A DNA stretch of 64,000 nucleotides from Solirubrobacteraceae bacterium (GTDB lineage: Bacteria; Actinomycetota; Thermoleophilia; Solirubrobacterales; Solirubrobacteraceae): assembly GCA_030447505.1 (NCBI GenBank), contig JAUJOT010000008.1, positions 1-64,000 on the forward strand, written 5' to 3'. The translations under genes were made by a program, and so were the position numbers. Each line of letters begins with the position of its first letter. Positions within the stretch are counted from its first letter, which is position 1. Positions 57,072 to 59,839 of this stretch are shown piece after piece. The notes under the pieces were generated by a model. The model saw only the letters and a program-made list of their open reading frames with translations. It was not told the origin of the DNA and did not search any database.

Positions 57072-57851
57072 TCAGATCGGATTGGGAACGTCAACGAATC
57101 GATGCCGAATATCGAAGCGTTCTGCCAGCAGGTCGCCGACTCTGCGGACGCCGAACGTCTCCGTCGCGTAGTGGCCGGCGGCGACGAAATGGATGCCGTC
57201 CTCCTGGGCCTGGGCCATGACTCGCTCGACGGGCTCGCCCGTCAGAAACGCGTCGTGGCCGGCTGAGACCGCGTCCGCGAGGTAGCCCGAGCCGCCGCCG
57301 GAGACGATCCCGATCATGCGAACCTGCGCGGGCCCGGCGAGAAACGCCAGCGGCTCGCGGCCGGTCAGCCGCCCGACGCGCTCGACGAGCTCGGCGGCCG
57401 TGATGCCGTCGCCGTCGAAGCGCGCGGCGACCCCGATCGGCGAACCGCGATGCAACGCGAAGGGCTCCTGCGAAGAGCAGCCCAAGCCGGCCGCGATCAG
57501 CGCGTTGTTGCCGACCGCGGGATGGGCGTCGAGCGGCAGGTGATAGGCGGCGAGCGCCATGTCGTGCTCGAAGAGCAGCTGCAGGCGCCGCTTGGACGAC
57601 GCCGTGAGCGCCAACGGCGCGGCGTTCCAGAACAGCCCGTGGTGGACGAGGACGAGGTCGCCGTCATGCTCGGCCGCGCGCTCGAACAGCTCGGCGCTGG
57701 CCGACACGCCGGTGACGACGGTTTGCACCCGCTCGGGGCCGGGCACCTGCAGTCCGTTGGGTCCGTAGTCCTGAAACGACGCGGGCGACAGGAGCTCCTC
57801 GAGGTAGGCGATGATGTTGTCGAGCACGCCCGCGAACGCTACAGTTGCCAC
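57072..57851 (-). CDS. Nif3-like dinuclear metal centre protein (GTP cyclohydrolase I type 2 family)
   Basis: A 259-aa protein. VHHGLFW and AYHLPLDAH give the first His/Asp ligands, and FVAAGHYATETFGV the C-terminal His and Glu, as in the hexameric Nif3/YbgI family; biochemical role uncertain. It starts with GTG 57851 (VATVAFAGVLDNIIAYLEEL); a GTG at 57827 would also fit. A long antisense frame upstream is a shadow of the sigma gene. It is divergent from the sigma-factor gene, 75 bp away. Confidence 0.87.
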   Translation of the reverse strand: MATVAFAGVLDNIIAYLEELLSPASFQDYGPNGLQVPGPERVQTVVTGVSASAELFERAAEHDGDLVLVHHGLFWNAAPLALTASSKRRLQLLFEHDMALAAYHLPLDAHPAVGNNALIAAGLGCSSQEPFALHRGSPIGVAARFDGDGITAAELVERVGRLTGREPLAFLAGPAQVRMIGIVSGGGSGYLADAVSAGHDAFLTGEPVERVMAQAQEDGIHFVAAGHYATETFGVRRVGDLLAERFDIRHRFVDVPNPI

Positions 57852-57926: not shown

Positions 57927-59540
57927 ATGTCGGCCTTGGCAGTCGTAACCAGGCCAACGGATGGCGACACGGACGATCGCGAGCTCGTCGCACGCGTGCG
58001 CGCCGGCGACGACCGGGGCTTCGAGCTGCTCTTCGGGCGCTACCAGCCGCGGATCGCCGCCTACGTGCGCGCAATGGTCCGCGACCACGGCCGTGCCGAG
58101 GACATCACGCAGGAGGTCTTCATCTCGGCCCTGCGGCGGATGCGCGCGGAGACCGAGCGCGAGATCGTCTTCAAGCCCTGGATCTTCGAGATCGCGAAGA
58201 ACAAGTGCATCGACGCGTTTCGCCGCACACGCAACGCGAGCGAGGTCTCCTTCGACGCGCGCGACGCGATCGGCGCCGACGAGCACGGGCGGCTCGCCGA
58301 GCCTGGTGCGACGCCGGACTCCGCGGTCGAGGGCAAGATCGCGATCGACAACCTGTGCGGCGCGTTCGTCGGCCTCTCGTCGGTGCACCACGACATCCTC
58401 GTGCTGCGCGAGCTCGAGGGGCTGTCCTACCGCGAGATCGGCGATCGCCTCGGCATGAGCAGGGCGGCCGTCGAGAGCACGCTGTTTCGCGCTCGCAAGC
58501 GGCTGACCGAGGAGTACGAGGAGATCGTCAGCGGCGAGCGCTGCCTGCGCGTGCAGCGGATCGTCGATGCCTCCGGCGGGCGCGCCGCGGGGCGGCGCGA
58601 CCAGCGCCGCATGGGTCGTCACCTCGCGTACTGCCAGCCCTGCCGGCGCTACGCGGGCCGGGCCGGCATCGCTCTGGAAACGGTTGCGCGGCCGGCCGCA
58701 GGGGCGGCGCGGATCGCCGCGTTCCTGCCGCTGCCGGCGTTCCTGCGCCGGCGCTGGGGCGGCGACGATGGGGCCCCGCTGCTCGGTCACGGCGGCTCGC
58801 TGAGCCAGTGGTCGGCGAACGTCGCCACCGTCGTCGATCCCGCGGTCGCGTCGAGCTGGGCGAAGGCCGTCGCGGCGGCGGCGACCGTGGCGGTCGCCGG
58901 GATGGGCGCGGGCGCGGCATTCACCGATCGCGCGCCGCTTGACCCGTTCGGCGCGTCGCAGGCCCAGCTGAAGCAGTCCGCCTCCCGGCCGCCGGGGGGC
59001 CAGGTCGATGCACTCGCGGCGAGCGGGGCGGCGAAGCGCGGCGCGCAGGGCACGCAGTCTGTGCGCGTCGGGCGGCCGGTGCAGCCTCGCGCCGCGCAGC
59101 CGGCGCCCGTCGGTCGTCGCCGGGGCCGGATGCCGGCCGCGCCCGGCGGCAGCCCGTCGCAGCCCGCCAGCCAGTCGGATCGCCCGTTCGGCTCGGACTC
59201 GGGGTTGCCGACGGTCTTCGGGGGCGCAGTTGCGAGCGGAGCCCAGCGTGCGCTCGAGCCGGAGCGCCCCGCGGAGCGCGTGCTCGACACGGTCGTCCGG
59301 GCGCCGGGCGAGCCCGACGCCGCCGGCAGCAGGCCGATCGGCACGACAACGCCCGACCCGTCGCAGCTGTCGCACGGCAGCGAGGCTCCCGCCACCGGCA
59401 CCGTCGTCGACGAGGCCATGACGGGGACGCCAGACCCGGCCGCCGCGGACGCGAGCGCAGCCACGATCCAGGCCGGCGTCTCGTCCGCGATGTCCGGCGT
59501 GGTCGCCGCCAAGACGACGACACTGAACAGCCTCGGTTGA
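57927..59540 (+). CDS. ECF sigma factor fused to zinc-finger, TM segment and extracytoplasmic tail
   Basis: A 537-aa protein. Sigma2 (about 20-100: GFELLFGRYQPRIAAYVRAM, DHGRAEDITQEVFISALRRM, WIFEIAKNKCIDAFRR) and sigma4 (about 140-195: LVLRELEGLSYREIGDRLGM, SRAAVESTLFRARKRL) are intact. After them comes HLAYCQPC (H232-x3-C236-x2-C239), as in zinc-binding anti-sigma domains, then a hydrophobic helix (about 312-332) and about 200 residues rich in Pro, Ala, Ser and Gly. ECF factors are normally about 180-220 aa with a separate anti-sigma. Here the regulator seems to be in cis, which would hold the sigma factor at the membrane. Its trigger is unknown; regulated proteolysis is one possibility. 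Confidence 0.85.
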   Translation: MSALAVVTRPTDGDTDDRELVARVRAGDDRGFELLFGRYQPRIAAYVRAMVRDHGRAEDITQEVFISALRRMRAETEREIVFKPWIFEIAKNKCIDAFRRTRNASEVSFDARDAIGADEHGRLAEPGATPDSAVEGKIAIDNLCGAFVGLSSVHHDILVLRELEGLSYREIGDRLGMSRAAVESTLFRARKRLTEEYEEIVSGERCLRVQRIVDASGGRAAGRRDQRRMGRHLAYCQPCRRYAGRAGIALETVARPAAGAARIAAFLPLPAFLRRRWGGDDGAPLLGHGGSLSQWSANVATVVDPAVASSWAKAVAAAATVAVAGMGAGAAFTDRAPLDPFGASQAQLKQSASRPPGGQVDALAASGAAKRGAQGTQSVRVGRPVQPRAAQPAPVGRRRGRMPAAPGGSPSQPASQSDRPFGSDSGLPTVFGGAVASGAQRALEPERPAERVLDTVVRAPGEPDAAGSRPIGTTTPDPSQLSHGSEAPATGTVVDEAMTGTPDPAAADASAATIQAGVSSAMSGVVAAKTTTLNSLG

Positions 59541-59672
59541 TGAGCGCGGCGACGGCGAGCTCGAGCCGTTCGCCGACATCGCCCTTTACGCGCTCGGCGC
59601 GGACTTCGCCGATCGCCAGCCGGAGTTGACGGACGAGCGGTCGCAGGGTCGTCGTGAGATAATGCCGAGCAT

Positions 59673-59746
59673 CGGGGCGTGGCGCAGCTTGGTAGCGCGC
59701 ACCGTTCGGGTCGGTGAGGTCCCCGGTTCAAATCCGGGCGCCCCGA
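59673..59746 (+). tRNA. tRNA-Pro (anticodon CGG)
   Basis: 74 nt. Acceptor CGGGGCG/CGCCCCG, D arm GCGC...GCGC with AGCTTGGTA, anticodon arm CACCG-TTCGGGT-CGGTG giving anticodon CGG, T arm CCCGG-TTCAAAT-CCGGG, discriminator A. CCA is not encoded. GATAAT (59658-59663) just upstream is a good -10 box. Confidence 0.96.
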
Positions 59747-59839
59747 TACAGGCTCGTCGAACCGCCACCACTGCTGCTTCGTGGCTCTGGGCGAACAGCG
59801 GGTACACGACATCGACCGAGCGAGCAACGAGGAGAGACG

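What the first reader, a model, noticed from the sequence alone, without database searches (positions are those of the whole stretch)
57927..59540. ECF sigma factor carrying its own zinc-finger, membrane helix and long surface tail
Sigma2 and sigma4 are complete, yet the protein continues through an H-x3-C-x2-C motif, a TM helix and about 200 low-complexity residues. This is the layout of a sigma factor and a membrane anti-sigma in one chain. Such a protein must be released or act at the membrane, so its signalling may differ from the usual two-protein system. The gene lacks a separate anti-sigma neighbour.
Basis: partly seen in the sequence, partly recalled or inferred. Interest (0 to 1): 0.6.

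Follow-up and report, generated by a model that had tools for sequence, protein, structure and literature searches.

The report
One-piece membrane sigma/anti-sigma factor
The gene makes one protein that joins a gene-switching sigma factor to a zinc inhibitor domain, a probable membrane anchor and a variable outer tail; this layout is already known from other actinobacteria, but here it belongs to a family that has multiplied to at least eight copies in one genome.

Summary
Window 57927-59540 (+) encodes a 537-aa ECF sigma factor (sigma2 and sigma4 intact) that runs on through C-x25-H-x3-C-x2-C, a weakly hydrophobic Ala/Gly-rich segment and a ~200-residue low-complexity tail. The four zinc ligands are invariant in 32 of 32 Solirubrobacterales orthologs. 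A profile of the extension matches only four PDB sequences, all zinc anti-sigma factors (RsiW, RslA, ChrR). The hydrophobic segment and an invariant Lys before it are kept in 29 of 29 orthologs, although it is only a marginal membrane helix by hydrophobicity. So this is very probably a sigma factor fused to its own class I anti-sigma domain, tethered to the membrane and released by proteolysis (inferred). The design is known: ECF48/ECF52/ECF53 of Actinobacteria and IutY of Pseudomonas.

New here: one supported clade of such fusions in Thermoleophilia, at least eight in this genome; one pair keeps the sigma domain (189/190) while the tails have diverged (66/156). No separate zinc anti-sigma gene lies nearby. 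A conserved ~80-aa unknown protein (F3) usually follows the gene, but also occurs without it, and in the window it is a broken remnant.

The parts
57927..59540 (+). Gene for the fused ECF sigma / anti-sigma protein, 537 aa
   Evidence: orthologs
58029..58232 (+). sigma region 2 (aa 35-102)
   Evidence: Pfam Sigma70_r2 2.9e-15
58368..58505 (+). sigma region 4 (aa 148-193)
   Evidence: Pfam Sigma70_r4_2 3.3e-12 and Sigma70_r4 1.6e-8
58533..58667 (+). Zinc anti-sigma-like domain (aa 203-247): C206, H232, C236, C239; three predicted helices 204-216, 223-233, 237-245
   Evidence: invariant in 32/32 orthologs; zf-HC2 in 26/29 orthologs; profile matches RsiW, RslA, ChrR only; low-confidence AF2 helices
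58695..58757 (+). Conserved juxtamembrane stretch (aa 257-277, includes RIAAFLPLPAFLRRRW; P268 and P270 invariant); possible counterpart of anti-sigma helix 4
   Evidence: conservation; helix-4 assignment is inference
58866..58925 (+). Probable transmembrane helix (aa 314-333), preceded by invariant K313
   Evidence: predicted helix 310-332; marginal hydrophobicity
58926..59537 (+). Low-complexity tail (aa 334-537), probably extracytoplasmic
   Evidence: composition; dN/dS 0.55-0.95 against 0.08-0.41 for sigma
57834..57847 (+). GAACGCTACAGTTG, a conserved dyad 93 bp before the start; contains TACAGT, a -10-like hexamer, 17 bp after TTGTCG
   Evidence: 0-1 mismatches in 11 orthologs including the window (0/100 shuffles each); one other 1-mismatch site in the genome; promoter role is inference (one search found no strict sigma-70 match)
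59541..59657 (+). Remnant of F3, the small gene that normally follows the sigma gene: start codon lost, 124-bp internal deletion at 59636/59637
59672..59747 (+). tRNA-Pro(CGG), downstream neighbour conserved in most orthologous loci
57072..57842 (-). Nif3-family gene, divergent neighbour conserved in most loci

Best explanation
A single-chain, membrane-tethered ECF sigma factor. SHOWN: intact sigma2/sigma4 is followed after about 10 residues by a conserved zinc anti-sigma (class I) domain, then a conserved Lys and an uncharged ~20-residue segment, then a fast-evolving tail. INFERRED: the zinc domain folds back on sigma2/sigma4 and keeps the sigma from core RNA polymerase (cis-inhibition); the hydrophobic segment spans the membrane and the tail lies outside as the input part; a signal triggers cutting of the tail and then intramembrane cutting by a site-2 protease, and final trimming of the anti-sigma part frees the sigma domain.
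For: Domains. Zinc ligands invariant in 32/32 orthologs; zf-HC2 in 26/29; the extension profile hits only RsiW (0.0085), RslA (0.01) and ChrR (0.3) among 177,635 PDB sequences. Helices 204-216, 223-233 and 237-245 with Hx3Cx2C between helices 2 and 3, as described for class I domains in PMC7406223. Membrane segment position and K313 kept in 29/29. Purifying selection across sigma, zinc domain and TM, relaxed in the tail. No separate zinc anti-sigma gene near the sigma gene in the window or in 20 relatives' loci (one HxxxCxxC in an unrelated 885-aa protein in L104). Site-2 protease genes present in the genome. Published precedents with the same design and truncation or protease data: SCO4117 and IutY.
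Against: The hydrophobic segment is weak (dG about +1 by an approximate scale, between soluble and true membrane controls). The AF2 model has low confidence (pLDDT 52, only 4 sequences) and does not show the domain packed on sigma. No site-1 protease was searched for. No ECF-type promoter precedes the gene, so the usual autoregulation signature is missing.
Confidence: 0.72

Rival explanations
1. A soluble redox or zinc sensor in cis: the zinc domain inhibits the attached sigma and lets go on oxidation (RsrA- or ChrR-like). The Ala/Gly-rich stretch is not a membrane helix and the tail stays in the cytoplasm.
For: Hydrophobicity is marginal and overlaps a soluble control. Zinc anti-sigma domains are over-represented among soluble anti-sigmas (PMC7406223).
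Against: Uncharged segment with an invariant Lys at a fixed place in 29/29 orthologs, and hydrophobic segments in nearly all fused paralogs. The Pro/Ala/Ser-rich tail fits a wall-spanning region.
Confidence: 0.15
2. A membrane-acting sigma that is never released: it recruits RNA polymerase to promoters while anchored, with the tail changing the zinc domain's grip by conformation only.
For: No cleavage motif or tail-recognition motif is conserved; tails vary freely.
Against: Fused relatives studied so far (IutY; by inference SCO4117) act through proteolysis. Site-2 protease genes are present.
Confidence: 0.08
3. The zinc domain has lost inhibition and serves only as a structural tether; activity is set by transcription level.
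For: Upstream element with a -10-like hexamer rather than an ECF-type promoter.
Against: All zinc ligands, R205, R240 and A243 invariant, with dN/dS mostly 0.2-0.4 in that region.
Confidence: 0.05

Closest known systems
ECF52 (SCO4117 of Streptomyces coelicolor), with ECF48 and ECF53
   Same: Sigma domain, zinc finger, 1-2 membrane helices and a long Pro-rich tail in one chain; Actinobacteria; proteolytic release proposed (PMC8999054, PMC5826349)
   Different: SCO4117 ends in a carbohydrate-binding domain; here the tail has no recognised domain. Group membership could not be scored because no reference sequences or group models were available
IutY of Pseudomonas putida (ECF243)
   Same: Sigma and anti-sigma in one membrane chain, shown to be cut by Prc and RseP (PMC5411451)
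   Different: In IutY the anti-sigma domain is periplasmic and signals through an outer-membrane receptor; here the inhibitor is a zinc domain directly after sigma4, before the membrane segment
RsiW/SigW and RslA/SigL two-protein systems
   Same: Zinc class I anti-sigma domain; best profile matches of the extension
   Different: Separate proteins there, one chain here

Membership tests
ECF sigma factor | sigma2 and sigma4, no sigma3 | tested here: met
   (TIGR02937 1.1e-25)
Class I zinc anti-sigma domain | Hx3Cx2C plus an upstream fourth ligand across three helices | tested here: met
Class I zinc anti-sigma domain | helix 4 binding sigma2 | tested here: inconclusive
   conserved stretch aa 257-267 is a candidate; model confidence too low
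Fused ECF with membrane anti-sigma (ECF48/52/53 type) | zinc domain and 1-2 TM helices C-terminal to sigma4 in one chain | tested here: inconclusive
   zinc domain met; TM conserved but marginal
ECF52 | C-terminal carbohydrate-binding domain | tested here: not met
   no Pfam domain in the tail
ECF48/ECF52/ECF53 group assignment | score against the ECF group models | not testable with these tools
   classification paper not held
Proteolytic release (RIP) | site-1 and site-2 cutting releases sigma | not testable with these tools
   only the presence of site-2 protease genes was shown

The most novel reading that the evidence does not exclude
Thermoleophilia use a single-origin, expanded family of one-piece membrane sigma factors (eight or more per genome) as a main route of envelope signalling, with constant sigma outputs and rapidly diversifying outer tails, so that several sensors can feed the same promoters (L063/L064).
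Probability: 0.35. Interest if true: 0.6.

Novelty: new member of a known kind. Interest (0 to 1): 0.36.

Why it matters
If right, many sigma factors of this common but poorly studied soil lineage are held at the membrane by their own inhibitor rather than by a partner protein. It gives a natural series of fused proteins with conserved sigma parts and changing tails in which to test how a tail controls sigma release.

Tried and rejected
(1) A conserved C-terminal 'LGG' end as a protease tag: seen in several orthologs, not general; in the case inspected (L095) the letters CTTGGCGGATGA also carry the start of the next gene, so overlap explains them. (2) The downstream ~80-aa protein F3 as a dedicated regulator: it follows most orthologs directly, often overlapping the stop, but also occurs without the sigma gene, next to Nif3, in other families, so it is not a dedicated partner. 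(3) ECF-type autoregulation: no AAC-N14-19-CGT[CA] site at a shared position upstream. (4) The upstream dyad as a regulon site: only one other copy (1 mismatch) in the genome. (5) Fold search with the AF2 model: no match at E 0.001 or better; the top matches are sigma domains, with low TM-scores. (6) P0001 alone against Pfam does not reach the zf-HC2 cut-off; only other family members do.

Full report
OBSERVATION. The frame 57927-59540 (+) encodes 537 aa. Sigma70_r2 and Sigma70_r4 are complete. Beyond aa 196 the chain carries C206 and H232LAYC236QPC239, a hydrophobic segment at 314-333 and a tail to 537. GC at third codon positions stays 0.86-0.96 through the whole gene including the tail. In several relatives the following gene starts 4-11 bases before the end of the sigma stop codon, which fits translation of the tail to its end.

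CONSERVATION. Orthologs were found in Solirubrobacteraceae (named records L014 and L015, 80% and 60% identical) and in 25 of 121 genomes sampled from the order at E 1e-40, the window's own included. In 32 aligned orthologs Y197, G203, R205, C206, H232, C236, C239, R240 and A243 never vary; P268, P270 and K313 are invariant in the 29 that reach so far. One further hit, L030, was left out because its reading frame breaks before the zinc domain. Pairwise dN/dS is 0.08-0.41 in sigma, 0.21-0.58 in the zinc domain, 0.12-0.65 in linker plus TM and 0.55-0.95 in the tail; several synonymous values are near saturation, so these are rough.

WHAT THE EXTENSION IS. zf-HC2 is recognised in 26 of 29 orthologs. 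A profile of aa 199-255 matches four PDB sequences at E up to 5, all ECF anti-sigma factors: RsiW, RslA and two ChrR entries. The first two E-values, about 0.01, are modest, but no other protein is listed. A 4-sequence AlphaFold run (pLDDT 52) places helices at 204-216, 223-233, 237-245 and 310-332; it is too weak to show how the domain packs. The stretch after the zinc domain (RIAAFLPLPAFLRRRW) may be the sigma2-binding helix 4 of class I domains (PMC7406223); this is inference.

MEMBRANE SEGMENT. All 29 orthologs have a 19-residue window of KD 1.40-2.09 at this place, at or directly after the invariant Lys. In the window protein a run of 20 residues without D, E, K, R, H, N, Q or P is reached by 90 of 5000 shuffles of its own extension. 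By an approximate biological scale the segment scores about +1, between the soluble proteins of the window (+1.3 to +1.9) and a signal peptide (0) or membrane protein (-1.5). A membrane helix is therefore likely but not shown.

FAMILY. The genome has 34 sigma70 region-2 hits. Eight sigma proteins, this one included, carry HxxxCxxC and a long extension, and a ninth has the motif with a short one. A tree of 69 sigma domains puts this ortholog group (99/99) with 22 other sequences from Thermoleophilia, almost all fused, in one clade (96/97); fusions from other Actinomycetota lie outside, with weak deep support. The sampling followed hits of our own profile, so wider sampling could change this. 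One plain sigma factor (L051) is nested among the fusions, suggesting loss of the extension. Two paralogs, L063 and L064, agree at 189/190 in sigma, 52/60 in the zinc domain, 72/89 in linker plus TM and 66/156 in the tail.

NEIGHBOURHOOD. The usual order is acyl-CoA synthetase, a small gene and Nif3 on one strand, then the sigma gene, F3 and tRNA-Pro(CGG) on the other. F3 is a ~80-aa family, predicted helical, without a Pfam match. It also stands next to Nif3, or in the same gene cluster, without the sigma gene in other families. In the window genome its only trace is a remnant with a lost start, changes at a nearly invariant Tyr and an invariant His, and a 124-bp deletion; the closest relative sampled keeps it intact. 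No separate zinc anti-sigma gene was found nearby.

EXPRESSION. A dyad GAACGSTACAGTTC lies 63-94 bp before the start in 11 orthologs (0-1 mismatch) and matches one other place in the genome with one mismatch. It contains TACAGT 17 bp after TTGTCG, which looks like a housekeeping promoter rather than an ECF one; the strict sigma-70 scan did not call it. This would fit steady supply of an inactive, tethered precursor; that step is inference.

MECHANISM AND PRECEDENT. A review describes ECF48, ECF52 and ECF53 as C-terminal fusions of a zinc domain, one or two TM helices and long extensions, expected to be activated by proteolysis (PMC8999054). For SCO4117 a truncated form retained some activity (PMC5826349), and for IutY cutting by Prc and RseP was shown (PMC5411451). 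Site-2 protease genes are present here. The most likely mechanism is the same: cis-inhibition by the zinc domain, a signal through the tail, stepwise proteolysis and release of sigma. The signal, the site-1 protease and the regulon are unknown.

VERDICT. A real, well-conserved and functionally interpretable protein of a known kind. The modest novelty is the Thermoleophilia expansion and the constant-sigma, variable-tail pair. Whether this clade already has an ECF group number could not be checked.

Noticed in passing
window 59541-59657; intact in L095:8369-8614, L096:8373-8615 and L123: F3, a conserved ~80-aa protein of unknown function (SLYSIGAYFxDRHPEL...QTLxTGLAVRYYxAVAG) downstream of Nif3 or the sigma gene in Solirubrobacterales; a pseudogene in the window genome with a 124-bp deletion.
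   Followed up: partly
window 57834-57847: Dyad GAACGCTACAGTTG between divergent Nif3 and sigma genes; reads as a -10-like hexamer on both strands (TACAGT / TAGCGT), so perhaps a shared bidirectional promoter.
   Followed up: partly
L071 (G000:C7:186183-186269): A 440-aa protein with what looks like a degenerate sigma2 region and no sigma4, an HLEGCWAC zinc motif, a strong TM helix and a Pro-rich tail.
   Followed up: no
L063 and L064 (G000:C3 about 88.0-89.5 kb; G000:C10 about 14.9-16.3 kb): Two fused sigma paralogs with nearly identical sigma domains (189/190) but diverged tails (66/156).
   Followed up: partly
L051 (G000:C3:158653-159174): A sigma factor without extension nested among the fused proteins in the tree; probable secondary loss of the anti-sigma and membrane part.
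   Followed up: partly
L050 and L068 (G000:C10:9279-10003): What looks like an ordinary two-gene sigma/zinc anti-sigma pair in the same genome, a natural comparison for the fused proteins.
   Followed up: no
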